Positions 1,461 to 54,196 of a stretch of 64,000 nucleotides of DNA are shown piece by piece. This stretch comes from Cellulomonas sp. KRMCY2 (GTDB taxonomy: Bacteria > Actinomycetota > Actinomycetes > Actinomycetales > Cellulomonadaceae). The notes under the pieces are model-generated. The model was not told the DNA's origin, made no database searches, and was given only the letters and a program-made list of their open reading frames with translations. Made by a program: the position numbers and the translations under genes. The DNA lies in assembly GCF_000526515.1 (NCBI RefSeq), contig NZ_JAGF01000001.1, positions 3,968,001 to 4,032,000 of the forward strand, given 5' to 3'. Within the stretch, counting starts at the first letter, position 1, and each line of letters starts with the position of its first letter.

Positions 1461-1525
1461 GGTTGACACGCTAGAGCAGGGGCGCTGCCCTGTGGGGGCG
1501 GCGCACGGCTCCATAGACTCGTCGC
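1461..1525. promoter_or_regulatory. Divergent leaderless promoter region, LiaF-like / patatin genes
   Basis: This 65-base gap holds both promoters. On the minus strand TAGCGT (1473-1468) precedes the ATG at 1460 by 7 bases. On the plus strand TAGACT (1514-1519) precedes the GTG at 1526 by 6 bases. Neither gene has a Shine-Dalgarno sequence, so transcription should start at or within a base or two of the start codon. No good -35 hexamer is visible. Confidence 0.6.
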
Positions 1526-2389
1526 GTGACGAGCCCACGTCCACCGACCCGGACCGGCGGTACCGGGCCGGTCGCCTTCGTCCTCGGTGGCGGAGGTGTG
1601 CTCGGCGCCGCGGAGGTCGGCATGGTGCGCGCCCTGCTCGTGGCGGGCATCCGGCCGGACATCGTGGTCGGCACGTCCGTCGGGGCGATCAACGGTGCGA
1701 TGGTCGCGGCCGATCCCACCGTTCGGGTCACCGACCGGCTGGCTCGCCTGTGGTCCTCGCACAAGGCGCGCGAGGTCTACAGCGACACCGTGACGCGGCA
1801 GGTGCACCGGTTCGCGTCCCGCAGCCACCTGCTCTCCTCCGACCCGTTGCGCCGACTCCTCGAGCACTCGCTCGGTGGGAAGACCGACTTCGCCGACCTC
1901 GTCGTGCCGTTCCGGTGCTGCGCGGCGAGCATCGAGCGGGCCGCTGAGCACTGGTTCAGCGAGGGCCCGTTGGTCGACGCGGTGCTCGCATCGGCCGCAG
2001 TCCCCGGTCTGCTGCCGCCCGTCCGGATCGGCGACGAGCACTTCCTCGACGGTGGTCTGGTCAACTCGATCCCGATCAGCGAGGCCGTCGCGTGCGGGGC
2101 GACGACGATCTGGGTGCTGCACGTCGGCCGGCTCGAGCGACCGCTGACCCCGCCGCGCCGCGCCGTCGAGGTCGCCCAGGTCGCCTTCGAGGTCGCCCGT
2201 CGGCACCGCTTCGCCCGGGACGTCGCGTCGCTGCCGGACGGGATCGAGCTGCACGTCCTGCCGACCGGCGGCGGTCGCCCCGGCGACGACAAGGCCTGGG
2301 CCGTGCCCACCATGAAGGACGTCCGCGTGCGGATGACCCGCGCCTACGTGGCCTCGCGTGAGTACCTGGCGACGGCAGCGGTGCCCTGA
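1526..2389 (+). CDS. Patatin-like phospholipase family protein (RssA type)
   Basis: 287 residues, GTG start. The glycine-rich oxyanion loop GGGGV is at residues 21-25, the nucleophile Ser51 sits in GTSVG, and the second member of the Ser-Asp dyad is Asp175 in FLDGG. All catalytic elements of bacterial patatin-like lipases, which hydrolyse acyl esters of phospholipids, are therefore present. There is no signal peptide, so it should act at the cytoplasmic face. Its stop overlaps the start of the acyltransferase gene by one base (TGATG), implying translational coupling and perhaps a deacylation-reacylation role in lipid remodelling; the substrate is not known. Confidence 0.88.
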   Translation: MTSPRPPTRTGGTGPVAFVLGGGGVLGAAEVGMVRALLVAGIRPDIVVGTSVGAINGAMVAADPTVRVTDRLARLWSSHKAREVYSDTVTRQVHRFASRSHLLSSDPLRRLLEHSLGGKTDFADLVVPFRCCAASIERAAEHWFSEGPLVDAVLASAAVPGLLPPVRIGDEHFLDGGLVNSIPISEAVACGATTIWVLHVGRLERPLTPPRRAVEVAQVAFEVARRHRFARDVASLPDGIELHVLPTGGGRPGDDKAWAVPTMKDVRVRMTRAYVASREYLATAAVP

Positions 2390-3432
2390 TGCCACTGCCT
2401 CCGTTGTGGATCCGCCGCCTGGTCAGCGGCCCGCTGCTCGTCCTGCTCACCGCGCTGCTCGTGGCGACCCTGCCGCTCTGGCTGATCATCGCGGCGGCGG
2501 CCTCGCCCCTCGTCAAGGGCTGGCTCCGGCCGCTCCGGCTGGTGTGGATGTGCACGGTGTACCTGGTCTGGGACGCCACCGCCCTGGTCGCCCTCTTCGT
2601 GCTCTGGGTCGCCTCCGGACTCGGTCGGCAGATCCACACGAGCCGGTTCATCCGGGCCCACTACCTGTTGACCGGCTGGTTCCTGCGGGTCCTGTTCCAC
2701 CAGGTGCGCTGGGCAGTGAAGCTCCGCATCGACGTCGTCGGGGAGCTGCTCGACTCCGCCGCACCCGACCGCCCGGTGATCGTCGCGAGCTGGCACGCCG
2801 GCCCGGGCGACTCGTTCGTCCTCATCCACGCCCTGATCAACTGGTTCGCGCGGGAACCGCGGATCGTCCTCAAGTCGACGCTGCAGTGGGACCCGGCGGT
2901 CGACGTGATGCTCAACCGGCCGCCGAACACCTTCATCGCCCCGGCGACGCCATGGTCACGCAGCAGGCCGCGCGCCGTACGCCCGTGGAGCCACGAGGTG
3001 GCAGCCCTCGCCGCCGGCCTCGACGGCAACGACGCCCTGGTCATCTTCCCGGAGGGCGGCAACTTCTCCCCGCACCGCCGGCGCCGGGCCATCGAACGGC
3101 TGCGCGCCGCAGGTCTGCACCGGATGGCGGACCGCGCGGAGGCGATGCGGCACGTCATCGCGCCCCGTCCCGGTGGGCTGCTCGCAGCGATCGACGCCGC
3201 CCCCGACGCCGGTGTGGTCTTCATCGCGCACACCGGGCTCGAGCGGATGGTCACCGTCGGCGACGTGTGGCGTGAGCTCCCGATGGACAAGCGCATCGTC
3301 ATGCGGCACTGGTTCGTCCCGCCGCAGGAGATCCCGACCGACCGGGAGGAGCGGATCGAGTGGCTCTACGAGTGGTGGGCCCGGATCGACGCGTGGATCG
3401 GCGAGAACCAGCCGATCGACGTCGGCCGGTGA
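2389..3432 (+). CDS. Membrane-associated PlsC-like acyltransferase
   Basis: 347 residues. Two hydrophobic segments at about 11-36 and 50-77 anchor the protein. The acyltransferase motif HX4D is present as H136-AGPG-D141, and a second block reads FPEGGNFSPHRR, equivalent to the phosphate-binding FPEG motif of 1-acylglycerol-3-phosphate acyltransferases. Family members transfer acyl chains from acyl-CoA or acyl-ACP to lysophospholipids or related alcohols at the membrane. It is longer than typical PlsC (about 240 residues) because of the N-terminal membrane region. It is coupled to the patatin gene upstream and followed 13 bases later by acylphosphatase. The exact acceptor is unknown. Confidence 0.82.
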   Translation: MPLPPLWIRRLVSGPLLVLLTALLVATLPLWLIIAAAASPLVKGWLRPLRLVWMCTVYLVWDATALVALFVLWVASGLGRQIHTSRFIRAHYLLTGWFLRVLFHQVRWAVKLRIDVVGELLDSAAPDRPVIVASWHAGPGDSFVLIHALINWFAREPRIVLKSTLQWDPAVDVMLNRPPNTFIAPATPWSRSRPRAVRPWSHEVAALAAGLDGNDALVIFPEGGNFSPHRRRRAIERLRAAGLHRMADRAEAMRHVIAPRPGGLLAAIDAAPDAGVVFIAHTGLERMVTVGDVWRELPMDKRIVMRHWFVPPQEIPTDREERIEWLYEWWARIDAWIGENQPIDVGR

Positions 3433-3445
3433 TCGGAGGCGTGCC

Positions 3446-3724
3446 ATGACCGGCGACCGGACCGTCCGGCTCGTCGCCGAGGTACGGGGCCTGGTCCAGG
3501 GAGTCGGATTCCGATGGTGGACCCGGTCCGTCCTGGTGGAGCTGGGTCTGACGGGTTCGGCCACCAACATGTCCGACGGGACCGTGCTGATCGACGCACG
3601 CGGCGATCGGGCGGCGCTCGAGGAGCTGCTGACCCGGCTGCGCAGCGGGCGGGCGCCGGGCAGGGTCACCGACGTCGCCGAGACCTGGGAGGCCCAGGGT
3701 CCCGACCCAGGAGCCGGTGCCTGA
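3446..3724 (+). CDS. acyP: Acylphosphatase
   Basis: 92 residues. The start is the ATG at 3446, chosen because GGAGG (3435-3439) lies 6 bases upstream and because the family is 90-100 residues long. The active-site motif GLVQGVGFR places the phosphate-binding Arg at residue 23 and the water-orienting Asn at residue 41 (SATNMSDG), exactly the family positions. It hydrolyses carboxyl-phosphate bonds such as acyl-phosphates and 1,3-bisphosphoglycerate in the cytosol. It is the last gene of the patatin-acyltransferase-acyP unit and converges on pyk across a strong hairpin. Confidence 0.93.
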   Translation: MTGDRTVRLVAEVRGLVQGVGFRWWTRSVLVELGLTGSATNMSDGTVLIDARGDRAALEELLTRLRSGRAPGRVTDVAETWEAQGPDPGAGA

Positions 3725-3778
3725 TCTCCCGACCGGGTCGGCCGCCGGTCGACCACCAGGACGACCGGCGGGACAAGG

Positions 3779-3808
3779 ACGGGCCCCGGGATGACTCCCG
3801 GGGCCCGT
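3779..3808. terminator. Bidirectional hairpin between acyP and pyk
   Basis: A perfect 12-bp stem (ACGGGCCCCGGG paired with CCCGGGGCCCGT) encloses the 6-base loop ATGACT. It lies between the convergent ends of acyP and pyk. No U-tract follows on either strand, as is common in high-GC actinobacteria, so it would act as a strong hairpin for both directions. Confidence 0.8.
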
Positions 3809-3830
3809 CTCCGACGTCACGACCCTGCTG

Positions 3831-5258
3831 TCAGGGGCGAACCTCGATCTCGGTGCCGATCTTGTGCACCAGGAGCGAGTTGGTCGTCCCGGGGACACCG
3901 ACCGGCGCGCCGAAGACGATCACCACGAGGTCGCCGTCCTCGGCCAGGCCGTTGGCGCGCAGGGTCTGGTCCACCTGGACGACCATCGCGTCGGTGTGCG
4001 GGACCGTCGGCACCTCGTACGTCTGCACACCCCAGGAGAGCGCGAGCATGTTGCGCGTCTGCGGGATGGGCGTGAACGCGAGCAGCGGGATCGAGGACCG
4101 CAGACGCGAGACCCGGCGAGCCGAGTCACCGCTCTGCGTGAAGGTCACCAGGTACTTGACCCCGAGCGTCTCGCCCACCTCGGCCGCGGCACGCGTGATC
4201 GAGCCACCACGCGTCTGCGGGCTCCAGCCGAGGGGCGCCATGCGCTCCCGGCCGTGCTCCTCGGTGTTCTCGATGATCCGCGCCATCGTGCGGACGCACT
4301 CGATCGGGTAGTCGCCGACGCTGGTCTCGCCGGAGAGCATGACCGCGTCCGCACCGTCGAGCACGGCGTTCGCGCAGTCGGAGGCCTCGGCCCGCGTCGG
4401 ACGCGGGCTCGAGATCATCGACTCCAGGACCTGGGTCGCGACGATGACCGGCTTGGCCGACCGACGGGCGAGCTCGATCGCGCGCTTCTGGACGATCGGC
4501 ACCTGCTCGAGCGGCAGCTCGACGCCGAGGTCGCCGCGGGCGACCATGATGCCGTCGAACGCGTCGATGATCTCGACCAGGTTGTCGACACCCTGCGGCT
4601 TCTCGATCTTGGCGATGACCGGGACGACGCGCCCCTCCTCGTCCATGATCCGGCGGACGTCGTCGTAGTCCGCCGCGCTGCGCACGAACGACAGCGCGAT
4701 GATGTCGGCGCCGATCCGCAGCGCCCAGCGGAGGTCGTCCTCGTCCTTGACCGACATCGCCGGCACGTTGACCGCGACACCCGGAAGGTTCAGGCCCTTG
4801 TTGTTCGAGACCGGCCCGGCGACCTCGACCCGGGTGATGACGCGCTCGCCCTCGACCGCGGTGATCCGGACGGCCACCCGGCCGTCGTCGATCAGGATCT
4901 GGTCGCCGACCTTGGCGTCGCCCGGCAGACCCTTGTACGTGGTCGACACGAGCTCCTTGGTGCCCGGGACGTCCTCGGTCGTGATGGTGAAGATGTCGCC
5001 CTCGGCGAGCTCGACCTTCTCCTCGACGAACCGGCCGAGCCGGATCTTGGGGCCCTGCAGGTCGACCAGGACGGCGACGGCGCGGCCGGAGGCCTTCGCC
5101 GCGGCGCGCACGTTGTTGTAGACGGCCTCGTGGACCTTCGTGTCGCCGTGGCTGCGGTTCAGTCGCGCGACGTCCATACCGGCGTCAACGAGCGCCTGGA
5201 TCTGCTCGGGGGACTCCGTGGCGGGTCCGATGGTGCACACAATCTTCGCTCTACGCAT
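3831..5258 (-). CDS. pyk: Pyruvate kinase
   Basis: 475 residues, the usual length for bacterial pyruvate kinase. It converts phosphoenolpyruvate and ADP to pyruvate and ATP in the last step of glycolysis. The N-terminus KIVCTIGPA, substrate-binding ARLNRSHG, catalytic Lys in IAKIEKPQG, metal-binding MVARGDLGVELP and the MLSGETSVGDYP block are all intact, followed by the C-terminal regulatory domain (about 350-475). It stands alone, with its own promoter: TAGGCT at 5270-5265 ends 6 bases before the ATG and there is no ribosome binding site, so the transcript is likely leaderless. Confidence 0.97.
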   Translation of the reverse strand: MRRAKIVCTIGPATESPEQIQALVDAGMDVARLNRSHGDTKVHEAVYNNVRAAAKASGRAVAVLVDLQGPKIRLGRFVEEKVELAEGDIFTITTEDVPGTKELVSTTYKGLPGDAKVGDQILIDDGRVAVRITAVEGERVITRVEVAGPVSNNKGLNLPGVAVNVPAMSVKDEDDLRWALRIGADIIALSFVRSAADYDDVRRIMDEEGRVVPVIAKIEKPQGVDNLVEIIDAFDGIMVARGDLGVELPLEQVPIVQKRAIELARRSAKPVIVATQVLESMISSPRPTRAEASDCANAVLDGADAVMLSGETSVGDYPIECVRTMARIIENTEEHGRERMAPLGWSPQTRGGSITRAAAEVGETLGVKYLVTFTQSGDSARRVSRLRSSIPLLAFTPIPQTRNMLALSWGVQTYEVPTVPHTDAMVVQVDQTLRANGLAEDGDLVVIVFGAPVGVPGTTNSLLVHKIGTEIEVRP

Positions 5259-5270
5259 GTCTCTAGCCTA
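5259..5270 (-). promoter_or_regulatory. -10 box of a leaderless pyk promoter
   Basis: TAGGCT (5270-5265) is followed by the 6 bases AGAGAC and then the pyk ATG. With the usual 6-7 base -10 to start distance, transcription begins at the A of the ATG. The same box and spacing precede mshC at 44903-44908. Confidence 0.6.
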
Positions 5271-5370
5271 TGTCCTTGCTTCTGGGACCTTCCGGCCCGT
5301 CCCTACCTTGTGGCCCCGGTATGGGGCCGGGCACCTTCCTTGCGCACACACGGTGAATCTCACCCGCGGC

Positions 5371-5387: not shown

Positions 5388-5404
5388 GTCCGCGTCGCCC
5401 TGGG

Positions 5405-35077: not shown

Positions 35078-35115
35078 GGCTACGAGAATGGCCCCGGAGA
35101 TGTGCTTGAGTCAAG
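35078..35115 (-). promoter_or_regulatory. ROK gene promoter with overlapping palindrome
   Basis: TTGACT (35114-35109), an 18-base spacer and CATTCT (35090-35085) precede the ATG at 35077 by 7 bases, giving a near-leaderless promoter. CTTGAGTCAAG (35105-35115), a perfect 11-base palindrome, overlaps the -35 and would suit autoregulation by the ROK protein. Confidence 0.55.
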
Positions 35116-36870: not shown

Positions 36871-36882
36871 CCGGCCAGGCTA
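36871..36882 (-). promoter_or_regulatory. -10 box of a leaderless dop promoter
   Basis: TAGCCT (36882-36877) is separated from the dop GTG by the 6 bases GGCCGG. It lies in the 22-base gap between arc and dop, and no Shine-Dalgarno sequence is present. Confidence 0.55.
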
Positions 36883-39724: not shown

Positions 39725-39735
39725 GACTGTCGAGT

Positions 39736-40884
39736 CTAGGTGGCGCTCGCCTGCCGGGGTGCCGTGCGGATCGCGGCGATCACATCCTGCGTGCGCAGCA
39801 GACCGACGACCTCCTGGTCGCGGCCCAGGACGACGATGACGGGTGACGTCCGCGCGAGCACCGCCACGACCCGGACGGCCGCGCTGCCGGTCAGGCTCCT
39901 GTCCACGACGGCGCCCGGCTCGAGCGGGACGGCAACGGCGGTCAGCGGGGTCTGCGCGCGGTGCCCGAACGGCACGTCGAGGACCGCTCGCCGGTCGACG
40001 TAGGCCACCGCGCGCCCGTCCCGACCGAGCAGCACGACCTCGTGCCCCTCGTCGCCGAAGGCTGCGAGGTCGGCGAGGGTGTCGGTCGCCGGGATCGCGA
40101 CCGCCGGCCTCATCAGGGTCCGCACCGACAGGCCCTCGACCGCGCGATCCGCCTGACCGGCCCGGATCGCCTCGGTCGCGCCGCTCCAGAGGAACGCACC
40201 GACGACAGCAGCCCACACGATCATGTAGAGATCAGGCCGCGCGCCCCCGAGCAGCGGCCACCCGACCGCCACGACGACGACCCCGAAGGCCATCAGGCGG
40301 CCCAGCCAACCCGCCGCCAGCGTGCCCGACGACCGGCGACCGGTCAGCGACCAGACGACCGCCTCCAGGACGCGGCCGCCGTCGAGCGGCAGACCGGGCA
40401 GGAGGTTGAGCAGGCCGACGAAGCCGTTGGTTGCCGCGACCGACGCCAGCAGCAGGCTGACCAGTGAGCTGCCGGCGACCGCATGCCACGCCGCGAAGGC
40501 CACGCCGCCGATGGCGAGGTTCACCAGCGGCCCGGCCACCGCGATCACCGCGCTGGTCCGCGGGGACAGCTCGGCCGATCCCAGGTGCGTGTGGCCGCCG
40601 AGGATGGTCACCGAGATCTCCTGCACCGCGACGCCACGGCTCCGGGCTGCGAGCGCATGGGCGAGCTCGTGCAGGAAGGTCGAGGCAAAGAGCAGGAGCA
40701 CGGCTGCCCCGGCCACGACGTAGGCCGCCGACGCCCCGGTCGTGGCGCGGATCGACGGGGCGATCAGGAGAACGATCACGACGGCCGACACGGCCCAGCC
40801 CCGGGAGACCACGACCGGGGCGCCGACCGCACGCCCGATCACCCACCCGTTCGGGTGGGGCGCCCCGGTTCCCGTCGCTGCCAC
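39736..40884 (-). CDS. Site-2 protease family intramembrane metalloprotease with CBS domain
   Basis: 382 residues, GTG start. The zinc-binding HELAH is at residues 72-76 in the second membrane segment and the third ligand Asp168 lies in NLLPGLPLDGG. About six membrane segments span 20-230, then a cytoplasmic region (about 250-370) carries a CBS pair, which in related proteases senses nucleotides. It should cut membrane-embedded substrates, target unknown. TAGGGT (40896-40891) lies 6 bases before the GTG, a leaderless arrangement divergent from the nuclease gene. Confidence 0.9.
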   Translation of the reverse strand: MAATGTGAPHPNGWVIGRAVGAPVVVSRGWAVSAVVIVLLIAPSIRATTGASAAYVVAGAAVLLLFASTFLHELAHALAARSRGVAVQEISVTILGGHTHLGSAELSPRTSAVIAVAGPLVNLAIGGVAFAAWHAVAGSSLVSLLLASVAATNGFVGLLNLLPGLPLDGGRVLEAVVWSLTGRRSSGTLAAGWLGRLMAFGVVVVAVGWPLLGGARPDLYMIVWAAVVGAFLWSGATEAIRAGQADRAVEGLSVRTLMRPAVAIPATDTLADLAAFGDEGHEVVLLGRDGRAVAYVDRRAVLDVPFGHRAQTPLTAVAVPLEPGAVVDRSLTGSAAVRVVAVLARTSPVIVVLGRDQEVVGLLRTQDVIAAIRTAPRQASAT

Positions 40885-40931
40885 GCGCCAACCCTACGGT
40901 CGGTGTCGGCAGCACGCCGTACTCTGCAGAC
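40885..40931. promoter_or_regulatory. Divergent leaderless promoters, site-2 protease / RecB-like nuclease
   Basis: The start codons are 47 bases apart. On the minus strand TAGGGT (40896-40891) ends 6 bases before the protease GTG; on the plus strand TACTCT (40920-40925) ends 6 bases before the nuclease GTG. Two promoters this close must share or exclude polymerase, so the two genes may be co-regulated. Confidence 0.6.
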
Positions 40932-42660: not shown

Positions 42661-42738
42661 CCGCCAAGTCTAGGTCGACCACACCCGCACGCCCGGCGCC
42701 TACGAGGCCACCGACGGTCCTGCGCCTACGCTGGACCC
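42661..42738. promoter_or_regulatory. Divergent leaderless promoters, HAD / PAC2 genes
   Basis: On the minus strand TAGACT (42672-42667) ends 6 bases before the HAD GTG. On the plus strand TACGCT (42727-42732) ends 6 bases before the PAC2 ATG. No Shine-Dalgarno sequence precedes either start. Confidence 0.6.
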
Positions 42739-43630: not shown

Positions 43631-44896
43631 TCAGAGGCGGATGCCCAGCAGCGCGTCGAGCGCACGGGCGACGATCCCCGGGGCGCCCTGCACGTCGCCG
43701 CCGACGCTCAGCGAGGCGTCCGCCCAGGTGTCCATGGCACGCACCGCGGCCGGAGCGTCGAGGTCCTGGGCGAGCGCTGCACGCACTGCTGCGACGGTGC
43801 TCTCGGGGTCGGGACCGCCGTTCCCGGAGACCGCGGCACGCCACCTGGCCAGACGCGCCTGCGCGGTGGCGAGCACCTCGTCGCCCCAGTCCCAGTCGTC
43901 GCGGTAGTGGTGCGCGAGCACCGCGAGCCGGATCGCCATCGGGTCGACGCCCTGGTCACGCAGGGTCGAGACGAGCACGAGGTTGCCCACCGACTTGCTC
44001 ATCTTCTCGCCGCGGAGACCGACCATGCCGGTGTGCATGTGGGCGCGGGCGCCGGCGCCCGCGCCGCCCAGCGCTCTCGCGTGGGCCGTGCTCATCTCGT
44101 GGTGCGGGAAGCACAGGTCGCGACCGCCGCCCTGCAGGTCGAACTCCGCGCCGAGCGCCTGCTGTGCGATCACGGTGCACTCGATGTGCCACCCCGGCCG
44201 CCCGGTGCCGAGCGTGCCACCGTCCCAGGCCGGCTCACCGGGACGCTCCCGGCGCCACAGCGCCGGATCGAGAGGGTCCCGCTTGCCGGCGCGGTCGGGG
44301 TCCCCGCCGCGCTCGGCGAACAGGGCGACGGTCTGGTCGTGGTCGAGGCCCGCGACCGAGCCGAGGTGCGGGTCGATCGAGATGTCGGCATAGACGTCGC
44401 CGACCTCCGGGGTGGATCCACCGGCCCCGGGCTCGAGCGGGACCCGGTACGCGAGACCGCGGTCGAGCAGACCCGCGACGGCGTCGGCTACTCCGGGGAT
44501 CGTCTCGACGGCGCCGAGGTACACGTGCGGGGGCAGGACGGCGAGCGTCGTCATGTCCTGGGCGAACAGCGCGGTCTGCTCGGTCGCCAGCTTCTCCCAG
44601 TCGAGTCCCCGCTGCGCTGCACGCTCGAGCAGCGGGTCGTCGACGTCGGTCACGTTGGACGCGTAGCGCACCTCGAGGCCCGCGTCGATCCAGGCACGGT
44701 GCAGCAGGTCGAAGGCGATGTAGGTGGCCGCGTGGCCCAGGTGCGTCGCGTCGTACGGCGTGATCCCGCACACGTAGAGGGTCGCGATCGGCCCGGCCGC
44801 CGACGGCACGAGCGAACCGGTCGTGGAGTCCCGGACCAGGACCTCCTGTCCACGACCAGGGATCTTCGGGACATGCGGGGCAGGCCAGGTACGCAC
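43631..44896 (-). CDS. mshC: Cysteine--mycothiol precursor ligase
   Basis: 421 residues, GTG start. MshC joins cysteine to GlcN-inositol in an ATP-dependent step of mycothiol synthesis. It derives from cysteinyl-tRNA synthetase: the nucleotide motif is CGITPYDATHLGH (Cys43, His52, His55), zinc ligands include Cys43 and the Cys/His in GWHIECTVI and FPHHE, and the KMSKS loop is GEKMSKSVG. The specific TPYDATHLGH form separates it from CysS. TAGGCT (44908-44903) lies 6 bases before the GTG, the same box and spacing as pyk. Confidence 0.96.
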   Translation of the reverse strand: MRTWPAPHVPKIPGRGQEVLVRDSTTGSLVPSAAGPIATLYVCGITPYDATHLGHAATYIAFDLLHRAWIDAGLEVRYASNVTDVDDPLLERAAQRGLDWEKLATEQTALFAQDMTTLAVLPPHVYLGAVETIPGVADAVAGLLDRGLAYRVPLEPGAGGSTPEVGDVYADISIDPHLGSVAGLDHDQTVALFAERGGDPDRAGKRDPLDPALWRRERPGEPAWDGGTLGTGRPGWHIECTVIAQQALGAEFDLQGGGRDLCFPHHEMSTAHARALGGAGAGARAHMHTGMVGLRGEKMSKSVGNLVLVSTLRDQGVDPMAIRLAVLAHHYRDDWDWGDEVLATAQARLARWRAAVSGNGGPDPESTVAAVRAALAQDLDAPAAVRAMDTWADASLSVGGDVQGAPGIVARALDALLGIRL

Positions 44897-44908
44897 CTGC
44901 GCAGCCTA
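44897..44908 (-). promoter_or_regulatory. -10 box of a leaderless mshC promoter
   Basis: TAGGCT (44908-44903) is followed by GCGCAG and the mshC GTG, so transcription should begin at the start codon. Confidence 0.6.
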
Positions 44909-44993
44909 TCGGCGCGCGGTGCACCGGCACGCCGTCCCGCGTGGTGGGCCTGATCGTGCGCCGCCGCGGTCACGCTTGGGCCACACTGCTGAC

Positions 44994-45956
44994 GTGGAAC
45001 AGCTGAGCGGTGCGACGACGTGGCTGCACTCCCCCGCCGGCTGGCGGGAGGCCCCGCCCGGTGCGCGCCAGGCCGGCGAGGTCATCTGGGTGCGCGCGAC
45101 CGACCGGGCGGACTTCGCCGAGCTCGCTCCGCAGCTCGGCCTGCCCGTCGACGTGGTGCGCGACGCCGGGACGCACGGTCCCAGCGGACGGCACCACCGG
45201 CCGCACGTCGAGCACCTCGAGGGCGGGGTCTTCCTGACCGCGCCGACGATCATCTTCCGCGACTCGACCACCGACGTGCTCACCGGCGAGGTGACCTGCC
45301 TGGTGCTCGACGGCGTCGTCCTGACCGCCGAGACCGGAACAGCCGGGATCCTCGACCTGGTCGCCGAGCGGCTGACCGAGCCGACGACCACCGACCGACT
45401 GTCCGCCGGGGTGCTCTCCGCCCTGCTCTCCGCACTGGTGATGACGGCCTCCGACGTCGAGCTCGCTCTCGGCGAGGAGGTGGAGGAGCTCGAGAAGGCA
45501 GTCTTCTCACCGGGCCACACGACGCCCGTCGAGCGGATCTACGCCCTCAAGCGCGAGATCGCCGAGGCCCGCCGAGCCCTCGTGCCGCTCGGCACGGAGC
45601 TTCCCGAGCTGGTCTCGGACCCCGACGACCATGCGTCGGCCGACGCCTGGGTCCGCCGCCTGTCGACCGCCGTCGACCGGCTCGACGGTCGGCTCGACGC
45701 CCATGACGACCTGTTGGCGGACATGCTCTCCGCACACCTCGCGCTGGTCTCCGTGCGCCAGAACGACGACGTGCGCAGGATCTCCGCGTGGGCGGCGATC
45801 CTCGCCGCCCCGACCCTGATCGCCAGCGTCTACGGCATGAACTTCCAGAACATGCCGGAGCTCGGCTGGCCGTGGGCCTACCCGCTCGTGGTCGGTCTGA
45901 TGGCAGCGATGTGCGTGGCCCTGCACCGGCTGTTCACCCGCTCCGGCTGGCTCTGA
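44994..45956 (+). CDS. corA: CorA-family magnesium/divalent cation transporter
   Basis: 320 residues from the GTG at 44994. A large N-terminal cytoplasmic domain (about 1-255) with a long helix rich in Glu/Asp/Arg leads to two C-terminal membrane segments. The defining GMN motif is at residues 281-283 (YGMNFQNMPEL), between them. CorA pentamers admit Mg2+ or, in relatives, Zn2+ or Co2+. The start is chosen near the family N-terminus; a longer frame reaches back into mshC. It is divergent from mshC and convergent with uppP. Confidence 0.93.
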   Translation: MEQLSGATTWLHSPAGWREAPPGARQAGEVIWVRATDRADFAELAPQLGLPVDVVRDAGTHGPSGRHHRPHVEHLEGGVFLTAPTIIFRDSTTDVLTGEVTCLVLDGVVLTAETGTAGILDLVAERLTEPTTTDRLSAGVLSALLSALVMTASDVELALGEEVEELEKAVFSPGHTTPVERIYALKREIAEARRALVPLGTELPELVSDPDDHASADAWVRRLSTAVDRLDGRLDAHDDLLADMLSAHLALVSVRQNDDVRRISAWAAILAAPTLIASVYGMNFQNMPELGWPWAYPLVVGLMAAMCVALHRLFTRSGWL

Positions 45957-46877: not shown

Positions 46878-46894
46878 GACGCGCAACGCTACCG

Positions 46895-46989
46895 GTCACA
46901 TTGCCGGTTGCCTGCCGCTTGCCTGCCGCTTGCCGGCGGATCACGTGCCGATCGCGTGCCGGTCGCGGGCCGGTCCTGTGCCGTAGCCT
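46895..46989 (+). promoter_or_regulatory. Eight-unit 11-bp phased array ending at a -10 box
   Basis: The gap between divergent uppP (start 46877) and the aldo/keto reductase (start 46998) is filled by eight consecutive 11-bp units (46895-46982). Seven end in GCC; the fourth ends in GCG. Examples are GCTTGCCTGCC, GATCGCGTGCC and GGTCCTGTGCC. The array ends one base before TAGCCT (46984-46989), a -10 box 8 bases from the reductase ATG. The 11-bp period places the units on one face of the helix. Confidence 0.6.
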
Positions 46990-47983: not shown

Positions 47984-48043
47984 GTCGGTTCGCGTCGGGG
48001 GCTCAGTTCGCGCGGGGCTCAGTTCCCGCCGGGCGCTCAGTTC
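47984..48043. repeat. Four degenerate 16-18-bp repeats spanning a stop codon
   Basis: Units of the form CTCAGTTC(C/G)CGC(C/G)GG begin at 48002, 48018 and 48036, with a decayed copy at 47984. On the minus strand each reads GGGAACTGAG or similar. The copy at 48036 contains the TGA of the acidic-protein gene, so the last codons plus the stop have been duplicated into the downstream spacer. Confidence 0.6.
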
Positions 48044-48348
48044 CCGCCGATGTCGAGCTCGGTGCCGTCGAGCAGGTCGTCCTCCATGTCGTCGAGATCG
48101 TCCTCATCGACGTCGTCCTCATCGGAGTCGTCGTCGTCATCCGTCTCGTCGTCGGCGAGGTAGAACGGGAGCGTCTCGCCGTACACGCGGACCAGGGCGT
48201 CGTCGTACGCCTCGAAGGCGTCAGCGAGCACGTCGTACGCGTCGTCGACGGCCGGGTCCTCGTCGCCGCGCCGTGAGCTGACGGCGTGGAAGTGCGCCTC
48301 GAGAGCGGCAAGAAGTCGGTCGAGCGCGGCACGCGGATCATCGGTCAT
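48037..48348 (-). CDS. Small acidic protein of unknown function
   Basis: 103 residues from the ATG at 48348. The first half is helical (RAALDRLLAALEAHFHAV, then DDAYDVLADAFEAYDDALVRVYGETLPFYL). The second half is extremely acidic, a run of Asp/Glu with few other residues from about residue 66 to the C-terminus. Similar short proteins are often named primosomal or hypothetical in actinobacteria; no function is assigned here. TACCGT (48360-48355) is 6 bases before the ATG, so a leaderless mRNA is likely. It is divergent from the DUF5703 gene. Confidence 0.7.
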   Translation of the reverse strand: MTDDPRAALDRLLAALEAHFHAVSSRRGDEDPAVDDAYDVLADAFEAYDDALVRVYGETLPFYLADDETDDDDDSDEDDVDEDDLDDMEDDLLDGTELDIGGN

Positions 48349-48419
48349 GCCCCGACGGTAGCGCCACGGCGTGCACAATGGCACTCGATCGATCTGACCC
48401 GGGCACGGAGGTAGGGACA

Positions 48420-48656
48420 TTGGGCGAGAGCGCGACGATGCGGCAGGTCCGCGACGGCTGGCGAACGCAGGGCGGGCAGTACGAGTACCGCGTCCTGACG
48501 ATCGGGCACACCACGAGCCGCAGCGACGCCCGGCGCCTGCTGACCGAGGAGGCCGAGTACGGCCGGTGGGAGCTGGCCAGGAGCCGGCTCTACGCCGGCG
48601 GCGAGCGCAAGGTCTGGCTTCGCCGCAAGATCATCCGCGTCCGCAGCACCCTCTAG
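48420..48656 (+). CDS. DUF5703 family protein
   Basis: 78 residues from a TTG at 48420, chosen because GGAGG (48407-48411) is 8 bases upstream; an ATG at 48378 would place the ribosome site inside the gene. The core reads YEYRVLTIGHTTSRSDARRLLTEEAEYG, then WELARSRLYAGGERKVWLRRKIIRV, matching the actinobacterial DUF5703 family, which usually sits beside an M20 peptidase gene, as here. It is basic at the C-terminus and soluble. Function unknown. Confidence 0.82.
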   Translation: MGESATMRQVRDGWRTQGGQYEYRVLTIGHTTSRSDARRLLTEEAEYGRWELARSRLYAGGERKVWLRRKIIRVRSTL

Positions 48657-48744
48657 ACCACACCTGGACCACCGTTCCCCCGCGGCCCTCAGCCCTGCGA
48701 GCTGCCGGGTGGGGTCACCCGTCCGACACGCCCGACCGGGTGGG

Positions 48745-50127
48745 TCAGCAGGTCGCGAGAAGGCGGTCGAGGACGCGGACACCGAACTTCAGGGACTCCA
48801 CCGGCACGCGTTCGTCGACGCCGTGGAACATCGCGGAGAAGTCGAGCGAGGTGGGCAGCTGCAGCGGGGCGAACCCGTAGCCGGTGATCCCGAGCCGCGA
48901 GAGCGACTTGTTGTCGGTGCCGCCGGACAGCGTGTACGGCAGGACGGTCGCCCCTGGGTCCTCCGCCTGCAGGGAGGCGACCATGGCGTCGACCAGCCGG
49001 CCCGCGAAGGGCACCTCGAGCGCGACGTCGCGATGGATCTCCTCGACCCGCACGTGCTCGCCGGCCAGCGCGGCGATCGTGGCCCGGGCGGCGGCCTCGT
49101 GACCCGGCAGGAAGCGCGTGTCGATCACTGCCTGCGCGCTGCCGGGGATCACGTTGGCCTTGTAGCCGGCGTCGAGCTGGGTCGGGTTGGCGGTGTTGCG
49201 CGTCGTCGCGCCGACGAACCGGGCGGCCGGGCCGAGGGCGTCGACAAGTCGATCCACACCGTCCGGGTCCTGCGGGTCGAAGGGCAGGCCGGTGAGGTCC
49301 GCGACGCCCTGCAGCAGCGCGTGGACTGTCGGGGTCAGCTGGAGCGGCCAGGGGTGGTTGCCGATCCGGGCCACGGCGGCCGCGAGCATCGTCACCGCGT
49401 TGTCCGGGTTGACCTGGGAGCCGTGCCCGGCGCGCCCGTCGGCCACCAGGCGCAGCCAGCCGATGCCCTTCTCGGCGGTCTGCAGCAGGTAGGCCCGGTG
49501 CGGGGCGCCGCCCGGCACCCCGATCTCCACCGAGAACCCGCCGACCTCGCTGATCGCCTCGGTGGCGCCCTCGAACAGGTCCGGCCGCCGGTCGACCGCG
49601 TACCGCGCGCCGTAGACGCCGCCCGCCTCCTCGTCGGCGAACAGCGCGACGACGACGTCCCGCGCGGGCCGCCGGCCCTCACGAGCCATCTGACGCACGA
49701 CCGCCAGGATCATCGCGTCCATGTCCTTCATGTCCACGGCCCCGCGGCCCCACAGCAGGCCGTCGCGCTCCTCACCCCCGAACGGGTCGACGCTCCAGTC
49801 GGCCGCGGCGGCGGGGACCACGTCGGTGTGTCCGTGCAGGACGAGCGCACCACGCGTGGGGTCGGTGCCGGGCAGCCGCACGACGACGTTCGCACGCCCC
49901 GGCGCCGACTCGAAGAGCTCCGGGGCGAGGCCGACCTCGGTCAGCGAGGCCATCACGTACTCGGCTGCCGCGCGCTCACCGGGACCGGAGCCGTCGCCGT
50001 AGTTCGAGCTGTCGATCCGCAGGAGGTCCTGGCAGATCGGGCCGACCTCGTCCTGCGCGCTGGGGAGCGCGCCGCCGAGGCGGGGCGAGGGGGTCGACGA
50101 ACCGGGCTCACCGGTGGTGGCGGACAT
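48745..50127 (-). CDS. M20-family metallopeptidase
   Basis: 460 residues from the ATG at 50127. A di-zinc peptidase of the ArgE/DapE/CPG2 group: His100 and Asp102 in VLHGHTDVVP, bridging Asp132 in GAVDMKD, Glu166-Glu167 in FADEEAGG, and a late His in AMFHGVDE. A lid/dimerisation domain lies at about 190-340. Members cleave dipeptides or N-acyl amino acids. TACGGT (50140-50135) lies 7 bases before the ATG. Substrate not known. Confidence 0.9.
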   Translation of the reverse strand: MSATTGEPGSSTPSPRLGGALPSAQDEVGPICQDLLRIDSSNYGDGSGPGERAAAEYVMASLTEVGLAPELFESAPGRANVVVRLPGTDPTRGALVLHGHTDVVPAAAADWSVDPFGGEERDGLLWGRGAVDMKDMDAMILAVVRQMAREGRRPARDVVVALFADEEAGGVYGARYAVDRRPDLFEGATEAISEVGGFSVEIGVPGGAPHRAYLLQTAEKGIGWLRLVADGRAGHGSQVNPDNAVTMLAAAVARIGNHPWPLQLTPTVHALLQGVADLTGLPFDPQDPDGVDRLVDALGPAARFVGATTRNTANPTQLDAGYKANVIPGSAQAVIDTRFLPGHEAAARATIAALAGEHVRVEEIHRDVALEVPFAGRLVDAMVASLQAEDPGATVLPYTLSGGTDNKSLSRLGITGYGFAPLQLPTSLDFSAMFHGVDERVPVESLKFGVRVLDRLLATC

Positions 50128-50188
50128 GCGTGTCACCGTACCTGTCGCGTCGGGCCGGACGGTGGGTACCCGCGTCGGCCCCGACCGC

Positions 50189-52288
50189 TCATCCGGCGAG
50201 CCCCCTGCGGGCCAGCAGCGGGCCGATCTCCGGGTCGCGGCCCCGCAGGTCCCGGAACGCGTCCATGACGTCCATCGAGCCCCCACGGGCGAGCAGCCTG
50301 CTCCGGAACGTCTCGCCGTTCTCCCTGGTCAGGCCGCCGTTCTCGGCGAACCAGCCCACGGTGTCCGCGTCGAGCACCTCCGACCAGATGTAGGAGTAGT
50401 ACGCCGCCGAGTAGCCGCCGCCGAAGGCATGGTTGAAGTAGGTGGTCCGGTAGCGCGGCGGGACAGCGTCCAGCCGCACCCCGGCCGCCTCCAGCGCTGC
50501 GGCCTCGAACGCCTCGACCTGGTCGACGTCGTCGGGCACCTGTCCCGGTGCGAGCCGGTGCCAGGCCTGGTCGAGCAGGGCAGCGGCGAGGTACTCGGTC
50601 GTCGCGAAGCCCTCGTTGTACTGGCGCGAGGCGATCATGGTCTCGACCCAGGCGGCCGGCATCGGCTCACCGGTGAGGTGGTGCACCGCGTACCGCTGGA
50701 GGATCGCCGGGGCCCAGGCCCACATCTCGTTGACCTGCGACGGGTACTCGACGAAGTCCCGTGGCACCTCGGTACCGGACTGCGACGGCAGCCGCACGTC
50801 GGAGAGCAGCCCGTGCAGCGCGTGGCCGAACTCGTGGAACAGGGTCACGACCTCGTCCCAGCTGAGCAGGGTCGGCTCGCCGGCCGGGGGCTTGGGGATG
50901 TTCAGGTTGTTCGTGACGACGGGCCGCTCGCCCAGCAGGTGGCTCTGGTCCACGAGGTTGTTCATCCACGCACCACCGCGCTTGGACTCGCGCGTGTACC
51001 AGTCGGCCAGGAACAGCCCGAGCTCGCTGCCGTCGGCGTCGCGGACCTCGAAGACCCGTACCTCCGGGTGGTAGCCGATCAGGTCGGGGCGCTCGGTGAA
51101 CGTGATCCCGTACAGCTGGTTCGCCGCGGCGAACACGCCCTCGTGCACGACGCGCTCGAGCTCGAGGTAGGGACGCAGCACGGCGTCGTCGAGGGCGTAG
51201 CGCTCCTGGCGGACCCGCTCCGCGTAGAACGGCCAGTCCCAGGCCTCGAGCCGGGCACCCGGCACGTCGGCCTGCAGGGCGCGTTCGAGGTCCGCCGCCT
51301 CCCGACGAGCGTTGGCCGCAGCGGCTGGGGCGAGACGCGCGAGCATGCCGGCGACCGCTGCCGTGGTCTTCGCGGTGGCGTCCTCGGCGACGTAGGCGGC
51401 GTGGTGCTCGTAGCCCAGGAGCTCGGCCCGGCGGGCGCGGAGCCGGGCGAGGTCCAGGACGAGCCGGCGGGTGTCGTGCGGCCCACCCCGACCGCCCCGC
51501 GCCACGGAGGCCTCATGGACGCGCCGTCGGACGTCCCGGCGGGTCAGCGACGCGAGGACCGGCTGCTGGCTGGACAGGGTGAGCTCGATCAGGTGACCGG
51601 CGTCGTGGCCACGGTCGGCCGCGGCCTGCCGGGCCGCCGCGATCGCGTCGGCCGGCAGGCCGTCCAGCTCGGCGACGTCCTCGATCAGCAGCGCCGAGGC
51701 GTTGGTGTCGGCGAGCAGCTCGCGACCGAACGTGGTCTCGAGGGTCGTGATGCGGGCGTTGATCTCGCGCAGCTCCGCCTGGACCTCGTCGGGGGCGACC
51801 ACGCCGGCCCGCAGGACGTCACGGCGCAGCGTGTGCAGCAGCCAGGCCGCGTCGGGCGCCGGCGTGACCTCGCCCGCCCCGACGCGGGCCTGCAGGGCCT
51901 CGAGACGGTCGAACAGCCGGCGGTCGAGGTAGATCGCGTCGTGGTGCTCGGACAGGCGCGGCGCGAGCTGTTCCTCGAGCTCGTCGAGGGCCGGGGTGCT
52001 GTCGGCACTCGTGCGGTTGAAGAAGACCGCCGCGACACGGTGCAGCGTGCGGCCGGCCCGCTCGATCGCGAGCAGGGTGTCGTCCTCGTCCGGCGGCCGG
52101 CTGCTCGCCAGGATCAGCTCGATCTCCGCCCGCTCGATCGCCATCCCCGCCTCGAACGCCGGCAGGTAGTGCTCGTCACGGATCGCGGCGAAGTCGGGCA
52201 GCCCGTAGGGCAGCGCCGAGGCGACCGCGAACGGGTTGCCGGGGTCGAGCCGCTCGGTGGCGGACGTGGCACGGGCTTCGCTCGTCAT
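50189..52288 (-). CDS. M3-family metallopeptidase (peptidyl-dipeptidase Dcp type)
   Basis: 699 residues, close to the usual Dcp/oligopeptidase A size. The zinc motif LFHEFGHALH gives two His ligands and the catalytic Glu, with a downstream Glu in VNEMWAWAP as third ligand. The helical N-terminal region and the C-terminal FNHAFGGGYSAAYYSYIWSEVL block are characteristic. It degrades short peptides in the cytosol, a step downstream of proteasomal or Clp products. Its ATG overlaps the stop of the GNAT gene (ATGA), so it is coupled to it. Confidence 0.93.
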   Translation of the reverse strand: MTSEARATSATERLDPGNPFAVASALPYGLPDFAAIRDEHYLPAFEAGMAIERAEIELILASSRPPDEDDTLLAIERAGRTLHRVAAVFFNRTSADSTPALDELEEQLAPRLSEHHDAIYLDRRLFDRLEALQARVGAGEVTPAPDAAWLLHTLRRDVLRAGVVAPDEVQAELREINARITTLETTFGRELLADTNASALLIEDVAELDGLPADAIAAARQAAADRGHDAGHLIELTLSSQQPVLASLTRRDVRRRVHEASVARGGRGGPHDTRRLVLDLARLRARRAELLGYEHHAAYVAEDATAKTTAAVAGMLARLAPAAAANARREAADLERALQADVPGARLEAWDWPFYAERVRQERYALDDAVLRPYLELERVVHEGVFAAANQLYGITFTERPDLIGYHPEVRVFEVRDADGSELGLFLADWYTRESKRGGAWMNNLVDQSHLLGERPVVTNNLNIPKPPAGEPTLLSWDEVVTLFHEFGHALHGLLSDVRLPSQSGTEVPRDFVEYPSQVNEMWAWAPAILQRYAVHHLTGEPMPAAWVETMIASRQYNEGFATTEYLAAALLDQAWHRLAPGQVPDDVDQVEAFEAAALEAAGVRLDAVPPRYRTTYFNHAFGGGYSAAYYSYIWSEVLDADTVGWFAENGGLTRENGETFRSRLLARGGSMDVMDAFRDLRGRDPEIGPLLARRGLAG

Positions 52289-52887
52289 CGGGCCATCCTC
52301 TCAGGGGCGTCGTGGGGCCACTCCTCGGTGGGCTGCCGGGAGTCGCCGCGCAGGATCGAGCCCACCCACGCGTCGCGGCGGGTGCCGCGCTGCACCCCGT
52401 CCAGACGCCGGGTGCCCTCGAACCGGAAGCCGGTCCGCCAGACGACCCGACGCGACGGCCAGTTGCCGACGAAGGCCATCCAGGAGACCCGCACGAGGTC
52501 CGGTCCCGCCGGGTCGAAGGCGTGGTCGAGCACGCGCCGCACCGCCCGCACGGCCACGCCCCGGCCGCGGGCCCACGGCGCCACCCAGTAGCCGAGCTCT
52601 GCCGATCCGCAGGTCAGGGAGTCCAGCCCGATCATGCCGAGCAGCCCCGCCTCGCTGCGCGACCCGTCCGGGTCGCGCACGGCCCAGGTCAGCCCGCTGC
52701 CCGAGGCCCAGCCGGGCCCGACGACGTGCAGCAGGAAGCCGTCCGCGTCGGCGGCGGTGTAGGGGCTCGGCACCGTCGTCCACGCCTGGATGTCCGGGTC
52801 CTGGCAGGCGCGCGTGATGGCCCCGACGTCGGCCACGGTCGGCACGCTCAGCAGCAGTCCGTCGGTGCGCAGCTCGGTGGGCTCCAT
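52285..52887 (-). CDS. GNAT-family N-acetyltransferase (RimJ/RimL-like)
   Basis: 200 residues from the ATG at 52887. The fold shows LRTDGLLLSVPTVADVGAITRACQDP at the start, ELGYWVAPWARGRGVAVRAVR with the acetyl-CoA pyrophosphate loop (Q/RxxGxG/A variant RGRGVA), and the late NWPSRRVVWRTGFRFEG block common in RimJ-type ribosomal-protein or small-molecule acetyltransferases. The acceptor is unknown. TAGGGT (52900-52895) is 7 bases before the ATG and its TAG is also the stop codon of the diguanylate cyclase gene. Confidence 0.88.
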   Translation of the reverse strand: MEPTELRTDGLLLSVPTVADVGAITRACQDPDIQAWTTVPSPYTAADADGFLLHVVGPGWASGSGLTWAVRDPDGSRSEAGLLGMIGLDSLTCGSAELGYWVAPWARGRGVAVRAVRRVLDHAFDPAGPDLVRVSWMAFVGNWPSRRVVWRTGFRFEGTRRLDGVQRGTRRDAWVGSILRGDSRQPTEEWPHDAPERMAR

Positions 52888-52897
52888 CCGCGCCACC

Positions 52898-54196
52898 CTA
52901 GGCGGTGACGGTGCGCGCGCGCCCGCTCCCTTTTGCCCGGTACATCGCCTCGTCCGCCCGCGCGAGGATCGTCCCGGGGCGGTCGCCGTCGTGATGCTCG
53001 GTGACACCGGCGCTGAAGGTCAGCGAGACAGCCGGCTCGGCGAACTGCGTCTCACGGCACACGACGTGGAGCCGATCGAGCGCGGCGGCGGCCTCGGTGG
53101 CCGTCGTCTCCGGCATCAGGACGACGAACTCCTCACCGCCGCTGCGGCCCACCTGGTCGGGGGCCCGGACGAATCGCGCGAGCAGCTGGGCGAACCCGGC
53201 CAGGGTGGCATCGCCGACCGGGTGCCCGTGCGCGTCGTTGACGGCCTTGAAGTGATCGAGGTCGATGACCGCGACCGAGAGCGGTCGCCCGTACCGCGCA
53301 GCCGTGCGGGTCGCGCGGTCCATCGCCTCCATGATCCCTCGGTGGTTCAGCACCCCGGTCAGCGAGTCGTGGAAGGCCATCTCGGCGAGCGCCTCGTTCG
53401 CCCTGGCGAGGTCGGACTCCAGGGTCTTCCGATCGGTGATGTCCACCGCGAAGGTGACGTTCCGGATCCGACCGTCGGAACCGAGCACACGGCACGCGTC
53501 GGCGAGGATCGTCCGGGCGACCCCGTCCTTGCCGACGACCGTCCACTCGCCGCGGATCTCGGAGCCGCGACCGGTGAACTGGTCGTGCAGGGCGGCCGGC
53601 TGTTCCCGTCCCTCGGGCGGGACCACGAGGGTGAACGACCGACCGAGCAGCTCCTCCGCGGGAAAGCCGTAGAGGCGCTCGTAGGCGGGGTTGACGAGCT
53701 CGACGATACCGTCCTGGGTCGTCATGCAGATGCCCACAGGTGTGGCGTCGACGATCGCCTGAGCCTGGCCCACCGAGGAGAGGCTCAGCCCGCCCGGGGT
53801 GTGGCTCGACGAGACGTCGACGAAGCTCGTCACGAGCCGCACGACGCCGCCGTCGTCGTCGTGCACCGGCAGGACCCCGACGCGCAACCACACGAGCTCG
53901 TCCCCGACGCGGTGGCCCACGACCTGGCCGGTGACCTCCTGGCCGTCGCGGAGGGCCAGCACGTCCGGTCGCTCGTCGTCGGGCAGCACCTGTCCTTCGG
54001 GGTCCAGCAGCTCCCACGCGGCAGGTGAGAGGTCCTGACCGACCAGCGGGCCGCGCGCCAGGAGGCGCTGGGCCGTCGGGTTCGCATACTCGACGCGGCC
54101 GTCCGGCGCCTGGTCGACGACACCGACACCGATGCCGTCCAGGACGCGGCCGTACGCACTGACGCCCGCGGCGGCCGGCCCCCACGGGGGGCTCAT
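52898..54196 (-). CDS. PAS-PAS-GGDEF diguanylate cyclase
   Basis: 432 residues. Two PAS domains (about 14-130 and 145-257) are followed by a GGDEF domain with the active-site GGEEF at 353-357. The product-inhibition I-site RxxD is present as RAPD at 344-347, exactly five residues before GGEEF. No EAL domain is fused, so it should make c-di-GMP rather than degrade it. No membrane segment is seen, so the signal would be cytoplasmic. The ATG overlaps the ald stop (ATGA), coupling a second-messenger enzyme to alanine metabolism. Confidence 0.93.
   Translation of the reverse strand: MSPPWGPAAAGVSAYGRVLDGIGVGVVDQAPDGRVEYANPTAQRLLARGPLVGQDLSPAAWELLDPEGQVLPDDERPDVLALRDGQEVTGQVVGHRVGDELVWLRVGVLPVHDDDGGVVRLVTSFVDVSSSHTPGGLSLSSVGQAQAIVDATPVGICMTTQDGIVELVNPAYERLYGFPAEELLGRSFTLVVPPEGREQPAALHDQFTGRGSEIRGEWTVVGKDGVARTILADACRVLGSDGRIRNVTFAVDITDRKTLESDLARANEALAEMAFHDSLTGVLNHRGIMEAMDRATRTAARYGRPLSVAVIDLDHFKAVNDAHGHPVGDATLAGFAQLLARFVRAPDQVGRSGGEEFVVLMPETTATEAAAALDRLHVVCRETQFAEPAVSLTFSAGVTEHHDGDRPGTILARADEAMYRAKGSGRARTVTA

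What the first reader, a model, noticed from the sequence alone, without database searches (positions are those of the whole stretch)
1461..52900. Many genes share a TANNNT-N6/7-start arrangement typical of leaderless mRNAs
At least eleven genes in this window have a -10-like TANNNT ending 6 or 7 bases before an ATG or GTG and no Shine-Dalgarno sequence: the LiaF-like gene, patatin, pyk, dop, the site-2 protease, RecB-like nuclease, HAD, PAC2, mshC, the acidic protein and the M20 peptidase; GNAT is a further case. The ROK gene has CATTCT at 7 bases. Boxes are TAGGCT (pyk, mshC), TAGACT (patatin, HAD), TACGCT, TACTCT, TAGGGT, TAGCCT, TACCGT, TACGGT and TAGCGT. Three divergent pairs carry such boxes on both strands. 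Leaderless transcripts are known in actinobacteria, but a run of this density in one window gives a testable start-site rule.
Basis: partly seen in the sequence, partly recalled or inferred. Interest (0 to 1): 0.72.

Follow-up and report, generated by a model that had tools for sequence, protein, structure and literature searches.

The report
Leaderless gene starts in an actinobacterium
Many genes in this actinobacterium carry a promoter box placed so that the messenger RNA should begin exactly at the start codon; this is a known way of starting genes, here shown to be far above chance, kept through evolution, and sometimes packed so tightly that two opposite genes seem to share one box.

Summary
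Observation confirmed. All 12 named genes (11 plus GNAT) carry TANNNT 6 or 7 bases before ATG/GTG; three more (TrmI-like, uppP, aldo/keto reductase) have it at 8. Over 864 kb of this 71.5%-GC Actinotalea-like genome, spacing peaks sharply at 6-8: 109 of 746 genes against 8.5 in shuffles; window 15 of 57 against 0.58. Boxed genes mostly lack Shine-Dalgarno cores (11/109 have one, against 297/613) and never have A at -1 (0/109). Boxes persist in orthologues: mshC in 105 of 112 loci across the class. Best reading: sigma70-type -10 elements giving leaderless mRNAs. The class is in print (Zheng 2011, Cortes 2013, Shell 2015), so this is a new member of a known kind; no transcript was measured. Window density is only mildly high (p=0.017, post hoc). 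The last is the most novel lead.

The parts
1468..1473 (-). TAGCGT box, N7, ATG of LiaF-like gene (795-1460)
1514..1519 (+). TAGACT box, N6, GTG of patatin-like gene (1526-2389)
5265..5270 (-). TAGGCT box, N6, ATG of pyk (3831-5258); TANNNT at N6/7 in 36 of 61 family loci (own included), GAGGCT or AAGGCT in the other 25
35085..35090 (-). CATTCT, N7, ATG of ROK gene (33869-35077); box-like hexamer with C at the first position
36877..36882 (-). TAGCCT box, N6, GTG of dop (35203-36870); box in 25 of 30 family loci (own included)
39733..39738 (-).
40891..40896 (-). TAGGGT box, N6, GTG of site-2 (M50) protease (39736-40884); divergent from RecB-like, 47 bp between start codons
40920..40925 (+). TACTCT box, N6, GTG of RecB-like PD-(D/E)XK gene (40932-41837)
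42667..42672 (-). TAGACT box, N6, GTG of HAD hydrolase (41809-42660); divergent from PAC2, 78 bp between start codons
42727..42732 (+). TACGCT box, N6, ATG of PAC2 gene (42739-43602); box in 24 of 30 family loci (own included)
44903..44908 (-). TAGGCT box, N6, GTG of mshC (43631-44896); box in 105 of 112 loci across the class (own included)
44982..44987 (+). CACACT, N6, GTG of CorA-like gene (44994-45956); box-like hexamer with C at the first position, CACACT or CAGACT seen near the start in four relatives
   Evidence: there mislabelled ROK
46886..46891 (-).
46984..46989 (+).
48355..48360 (-). TACCGT box, N6, ATG of acidic 103-aa protein (48037-48348)
50135..50140 (-). TACGGT box, N7, ATG of M20 peptidase (48745-50127); box in 25 of 30 family loci (own included)
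52895..52900 (-). TAGGGT box, N7, ATG of GNAT gene (52285-52887)

Best explanation
The boxes are sigma70-type (principal sigma factor) -10 elements. RNA polymerase starts 7-9 bases after the box, on the A or G of the start codon, so the mRNA has no leader; ribosomes then begin at the 5'-terminal ATG or GTG without a Shine-Dalgarno sequence. Shown here: the box, its spacing, its excess over chance, its partner features and its conservation. Inferred: the actual transcript end, the sigma factor and the mode of translation. About 13-14% of genes use the strict box after background is taken off; some 4% more probably use the same element with C or G in the first place.
For: Spacing: at starts called from coding potential alone (722 genes), TANNNT stands 42, 14 and 8 times at N6, N7, N8, 0 or 1 times at every other spacing from N0 to N20, and at most 4 times from N21 to N49. 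Candidate starts: 109 of 746 genes at N6-8; nine other three-spacing bins 6-16; reversed pattern 18, complement 12; shuffles mean 8.5, maximum 15 of 100. Prediction: of 77 TANNNT-N6-[AG]TG in 864 kb, 64 lie at a gene's candidate start. Whole genome: TANNNT-N6-ATG 205 against 92 for the reversed pattern. Shine-Dalgarno core 11/109 against 297/613, p=1.7e-15. Base -1: A 0/109 against 47/613, C 72/109 against 278/613; a preferred -1 cytosine is mentioned for mycobacterial leaderless genes (Shell 2015, passage read). G at -5 in 64% of the 64 N6 genes, fitting the sigma discriminator (recalled). Conservation: mshC 105/112 class loci, pyk 26/29 further class loci, uppP 29/30, dop 25/30, M20 25/30, PAC2 24/30 family loci. 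Box positions 2 and 6 matter and position 1 is tolerant, as expected of the -11A and -7T of a -10 element, the best conserved promoter bases (Middlemiss 2023, passage read).
Against: No RNA data. No clear -35 is visible by eye in the base table, as also reported for M. tuberculosis (Cortes 2013, passage read). 12 of 109 boxed genes sit within 20 bp downstream of a same-strand gene, where an upstream transcript could also reach them. Five of the seven mshC misses have the box at N9 or N10, which would leave a leader of about 2-4 bases. pyk lacks the strict box in 25 of 61 family loci. Loci tested were the best-scoring matches, and starts there could vary by 6 to 30 codons around the aligned one.
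Confidence: 0.93

Rival explanations
1. Composition and gene-start artefact: TA-containing hexamers near starts are expected in intergenic DNA, and choosing among several candidate starts makes hits.
For: Candidate starts were allowed to vary (mean 2.5 per gene), which raises chance hits.
Against: The peak is present at starts called without the motif, is three bases wide, is absent for reversed and complement patterns, and exceeds every shuffle.
Confidence: 0.02
2. The boxes are -10 elements of promoters whose transcripts have very short leaders (1-4 bases) in many genes rather than truly leaderless ones.
For: Spacing varies from 6 to 8, and is N9-N10 in five mshC orthologues; start-site choice varies by a few bases in bacteria (recalled).
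Against: N5 and N9 are nearly empty in the genome (5 and 2 genes against 64, 27 and 18 at N6, N7, N8); A is never at -1 and C is favoured there, as for a start site at the codon.
Confidence: 0.05
3. The box region works mainly in translation, as an AGG-type ribosome-binding core inside TAGG boxes.
For: G is common at box positions 3 and 4; in pyk 25 of 61 family loci carry GAGG or AAGG at the box position, within the distance range where this genome's Shine-Dalgarno cores lie.
Against: T at position 6 is required with no translational reason; boxes such as TACGCT, TATCGT, TACTCT have no AGG, and orthologues of one gene differ in positions 3-5.
Confidence: 0.03
4. For pyk only: a single T to G change at the first box base turned a leaderless promoter into a leadered, Shine-Dalgarno-led gene in several lineages.
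For: 36 TANNNT loci against 25 GAGGCT or AAGGCT loci of 61, uniform within each genus code when searches are read together. On a pyk tree the label needs 6 changes, at least 3 forced by well supported branches (31 of the 61 rows hold only 300 bases). 26 of 29 class loci from other families have the strict box.
Against: The 25 loci keep A2, T6 and an N6 or N7 spacing, and 24 of 25 the GGAGA stretch, more than a Shine-Dalgarno needs; GANNNT at N6 is itself enriched at starts without a Shine-Dalgarno core (14 against a mean of 2.8 at other spacings), so GAGGCT may still be a working -10. No TANNNT lies within 50 bases upstream in those 25 loci, but other promoters cannot be excluded. A hairpin upstream is common there but no consensus fold was recovered.
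Confidence: 0.3

Closest known systems
TA-led (leaderless) genes of Actinobacteria and Deinococcus-Thermus, Zheng et al. 2011, PMC3160421 (abstract, passages, section 9 read)
   Same: TANNNT about 12 bp upstream of the start codon; Actinobacteria average 19.2% of genes, range 2.3-29.8%
   Different: Nothing in kind; this genome is a further case. They report turnover between SD-like and TA-like signals in orthologues statistically; class-wide retention at one gene, as for mshC here, was not seen in the parts read
Leaderless transcriptomes of M. tuberculosis and M. smegmatis, Cortes 2013 PMC3898074 and Shell 2015 PMC4633059 (passages read)
   Same: TANNNT without a conserved -35, ATG or GTG at +1, -1 C preferred; Cortes also notes closely juxtaposed divergent promoters
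   Different: Those are measured; here sequence only, in Actinotalea and its family
Streptomyces avermitilis transcript boundaries, PMC8780764 (passages read)
   Same: TANNNT -10 element; 22.2% of mRNAs with a 5' UTR under 9 nt
   Different: Measured; other genus; ATG preferred there, while ATG and GTG are near equal here (58 and 51)
-10 motif adjacent to ORFs in Deinococcus-Thermus, Zhong 2025, PMC12340547 (outline and passages read)
   Same: Same element and placement, conserved in homologues
   Different: Other phylum; tested there by mutation
Bidirectional promoters, Middlemiss 2023, PMC10268837 (passages read)
   Same: Divergent starts 7-25 bp apart through a nearly symmetrical -10
   Different: Usual distance there is 18 bp with -7 and -11 coinciding; here about 23-27 bp with the -12/-11 TA shared or the boxes abutting, and both predicted starts are also start codons; the word leaderless does not occur in that paper

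Membership tests
Leaderless (TA-led) genes | -10-like TANNNT at a fixed short distance before the start codon, above chance | tested here: met
Leaderless (TA-led) genes | Start codon ATG or GTG | tested here: met
   At freely called starts (TTG allowed) all 65 genes with a box at N5-8 were ATG or GTG; 58 ATG and 51 GTG of 109 in the candidate set, from which TTG was left out
Leaderless (TA-led) genes | No Shine-Dalgarno sequence | tested here: met
   11/109 with a core against 297/613; met for most, not each
Leaderless (TA-led) genes | Transcript 5' end on the start codon | not testable with these tools
   only indirect: -1 base and spacing
Leaderless (TA-led) genes | Translation from the 5'-terminal codon | not testable with these tools
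   needs ribosome profiling or N-terminal proteomics
Bidirectional promoters (fused divergent starts) | Divergent -10 elements sharing bases, more often than chance | tested here: met
   N6/N6 form 93 against 36 for the reversed pattern in 101 genomes; N7/N6 form 150 against 97, both strands; both summed by hand from the tables
Bidirectional promoters (fused divergent starts) | A real gene on each side | tested here: inconclusive
   16 of 60 loci examined have coding frames on both sides, 37 on one, 7 on none (score model trained on this genome only); orthologous pairs confirm some
Bidirectional promoters (fused divergent starts) | Transcription in both directions | not testable with these tools
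   no RNA data

The most novel reading that the evidence does not exclude
Fused divergent leaderless starts: two opposite genes begin 22-26 bp apart, and the whole region between their start codons is two -10 boxes that share one TA (or abut) plus two short discriminators, so one piece of about 28 bp is both promoters and both translation starts. In this genome it occurs at G000:C1:2245917-2245944 (Pyr_redox_2 reductase // DUF3017-like membrane protein). RNA polymerase could bind in one direction at a time, coupling the two genes by exclusion.
Probability: 0.45. Interest if true: 0.68.

Novelty: new member of a known kind. Interest (0 to 1): 0.42.

Why it matters
The box is a cheap start-codon predictor in this genome: 64 of 77 TANNNT-N6-[AG]TG sites in the sample fall on a gene's candidate start, while a caller using coding potential alone chose another start for 6 of the window's 15 boxed genes. 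Class-wide retention at mshC suggests that leaderless initiation can be a long-kept property of a gene and not only of a genome. The fused divergent starts, if transcribed both ways, would be a very small two-gene control region and a clean system for testing polymerase exclusion.

Tried and rejected
Rejected: that the window is a special cluster (15/57 against 94/689; 20-kb stretches range from 0 to 6 boxed genes). Rejected: that TANNNT-N6-8-[AG]TG is avoided away from gene starts (13, 19 and 10 at N6, N7, N8 against 10-25 at other spacings). Rejected: that both-boxed divergent pairs are more common than independent boxes predict (9 seen, 6.9 expected of 105 pairs); only short gaps are enriched. 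Rejected: a general GAGG-with-T6 hybrid element (T at position 6 in 7 of 53 GAGG cases, background 11%). My first reading of pyk as a clean switch from leaderless to Shine-Dalgarno was weakened. The upstream pyk hairpin gave no consensus fold and its excess over shuffles is not clear (z below -2 in 10/25 against 8/36). Results that do not fit as well: HAD/PAC2 was found with both genes in 29 loci, both boxed in 18 (in one of these, L043, the two starts are 2343 bp apart); in 11 the HAD box was not found (two of the 11, L051 and L289, are one genome). In one search I labelled the CorA gene (44994+) as ROK; one search corrects it.

Limits of counts. mshC: of 118 class genomes I examined one locus each in 112; the other 6 had only cysS-like matches or, in one, a C-terminal fragment. 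One search examined the 30 best-scoring matches of 41 family genomes for dop, PAC2, uppP and M20 (own included), and for pyk the 29 best of the other class genomes with a match (106 of 118 with a match, own included). In one search starts could lie up to 40 codons from the aligned one and were chosen for having a box. L051 and L318 are one genome, so the 34 uppP/aldo-keto loci are 33 genomes. One search read the 60 loci returned (30 each), not every hit. The control counts fall largely in a few genomes (G132, G134, G155, G162, G121 hold 13 of 36 and 41 of 97); they are included.

Paper searches: (all ten used). One search (leaderless, bidirectional, overlapping promoters, head-to-head, start codons; four of five terms) found no paper; this is a narrow search of open papers only. 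StartLink (PMC9581028) was seen in passages.
Full report
What was checked. The window is bases 3,968,001-4,032,000 of a 4.5-Mb single-contig genome, 71.5% GC. The mshC protein finds 12 records named Actinotalea or Cellulomonas at 77-83% identity, so the organism is Actinotalea or near it. Pfam confirms the gene names except for the acidic protein, which has no match; NCBIfam confirms mshC, dop and pyk.

Is it more than chance? Genes were called by coding potential alone in the window plus 40 stretches of 20 kb (864 kb, 746 genes). At the called starts TANNNT stands at N6, N7 and N8 in 42, 14 and 8 of 722 genes, 0 or 1 times at every other spacing from N0 to N20, and at most 4 times from N21 to N49. 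Allowing near-equal candidate starts gives 109 of 746 genes, against 6-16 for nine other groups of three spacings, 18 for the reversed and 12 for the complementary pattern, and 8.5 on average in 100 dinucleotide shuffles (maximum 15). For the window alone it is 15 of 57 against 0.58 (maximum 4 of 1000 shuffles); at the single best start only, 9 of 56. Whole-genome counts agree: 205 TANNNT-N6-ATG against 92 for the reversed pattern. The window is about twice as rich as the rest (15/57 against 94/689, p=0.017), but it was noticed for that, so this is weak.

What it is. Boxed genes mostly lack a Shine-Dalgarno core (11/109 have one, against 297/613); the base before the start codon is never A and mostly C; G prevails two bases after the box in N6 genes; no -35 stands out by eye. 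All this fits a sigma70-type -10 element whose start site is the start codon. Relaxing the box one position at a time shows which bases count: in the 613 non-boxed genes CANNNT and GANNNT peak at N6 (18 against a mean of 3.6, and 19 against 5.7, over the other 25 spacings), AANNNT hardly (4), while T[not A]NNNT and TANNN[not T] show no peak there. So A at position 2 and T at position 6 are the core, as for a -10 element, and the first T can probably be C or G; CATTCT before ROK and CACACT before CorA fit this. Adding these gives roughly 17% of genes, my estimate, near the 19.2% average that Zheng et al. report for Actinobacteria (PMC3160421, table passage).

Conservation. In relatives the box is the clearest conserved block before the start. 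mshC has it at N6-8 in 105 of 112 loci spread over the class, at 44-68% identity in the relatives' rows printed; start codon and spacing change, the box stays; of the 7 misses, 5 have it at N9-N10. pyk has it in 26 of 29 class loci and 36 of 61 family loci; the other 25 have GAGGCT or AAGGCT at the same place. On a pyk tree this label changes 6 times, at least 3 on well supported branches (half of the rows are short). Since A2, T6 and the spacing stay, and GANNNT at N6 is itself enriched, these are more likely tolerated -10 variants than true switches to Shine-Dalgarno starts, but mapping of 5' ends must decide. uppP 29/30, dop 25/30, M20 25/30, PAC2 24/30 (own included, best-scoring loci only); by eye some M20 misses look Shine-Dalgarno-led or lie right behind an upstream stop codon (L363, L372, L374).

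Divergent pairs. The three pairs of the finding are real and a fourth (uppP / aldo-keto reductase) was missed. In the sample, genes of divergent pairs with 80 bp or less between starts are boxed in 17 of 32 cases, against 37 of 178 for wider gaps (p=3e-4): leaderless starts allow short control regions. In relatives, site-2 protease/RecB-like pairs lie 48-124 bp apart with both boxes in 8 of 8 loci holding both genes; uppP/aldo-keto reductase has both boxes in 33 of 34 loci (32 of 33 genomes); HAD/PAC2 has both in only 18 of 29, with the HAD box missing in 11. At the extreme, L330 and L332 have 25 bp between the start codons and boxes sharing TA, and L343 has 26 bp with abutting boxes; the boxed starts match the aligned N-termini exactly on both sides. 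In L312 PAC2 and HAD are 24 bp apart, but the HAD start there is less sure (offset 31 codons from the window's longer N-terminus). A search of 101 family genomes for the shared-TA form with N6 on both sides gave 93 against 36 for the reversed pattern, and with N7/N6 150 against 97 (both summed by hand). Of 60 such loci read, 16 have coding frames on both sides, 37 on one, 7 on none, so most single hits are not gene pairs. One true case is in this genome (L378, Pyr_redox_2 reductase // DUF3017-like protein, the latter below Pfam's cut-off) and is kept in three other of the eight genus genomes searched (L377, L380, L411; 69-74% and 53-67% identity). A different gene pair shows the same form in another genus (L395, L397, L398, L434), which suggests a separate origin.

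Verdict. The observation and its reading hold. The phenomenon is known in actinobacteria (Zheng 2011, Cortes 2013, Shell 2015) and in Deinococcus-Thermus (Zhong 2025), so it is a new member of a known kind. The fused divergent leaderless starts are the part worth following; I found no paper on them in the searches listed, which cover open papers only.

Noticed in passing
window 48371-48384 (-), between the acidic protein (48037-48348 -) and a DUF5703 gene (48438-48656 +): GTGCCATTGTGCAC (GTGC-N6-GCAC) upstream of the acidic protein's -10 box is exact in 7 of the 9 relatives aligned and has one change in the other 2; the exact 14-mer occurs once in the whole genome, with one more site at one mismatch. 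It looks like a local operator or part of a divergent promoter, not a regulon.
   Followed up: partly
L378 1501-1528 (G000:C1:2245917-2245944): 22 bp between two divergent GTG start codons, with -10 boxes sharing TA; reductase // DUF3017-like pair, kept in three other genus genomes; a fourth, G149, matches by pattern only.
   Followed up: partly
L381, L383, L384, L391, L419, L429: A palindrome ACTCTAGAGT recurs at one-sided boxed starts in several genera of the family; it may be an operator over a leaderless promoter.
   Followed up: no
the 25 pyk loci without TANNNT: A GC-rich hairpin about 20-45 bases before the start codon is common and differs in sequence between loci; no consensus fold was recovered.
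   Followed up: partly
window 46877 (-) and relatives L317-L346: uppP shows N8 spacing, often with TC just before GTG or ATG, in 22 of 30 family loci, while dop, PAC2 and M20 show N6 or N7: spacing seems gene-specific.
   Followed up: no
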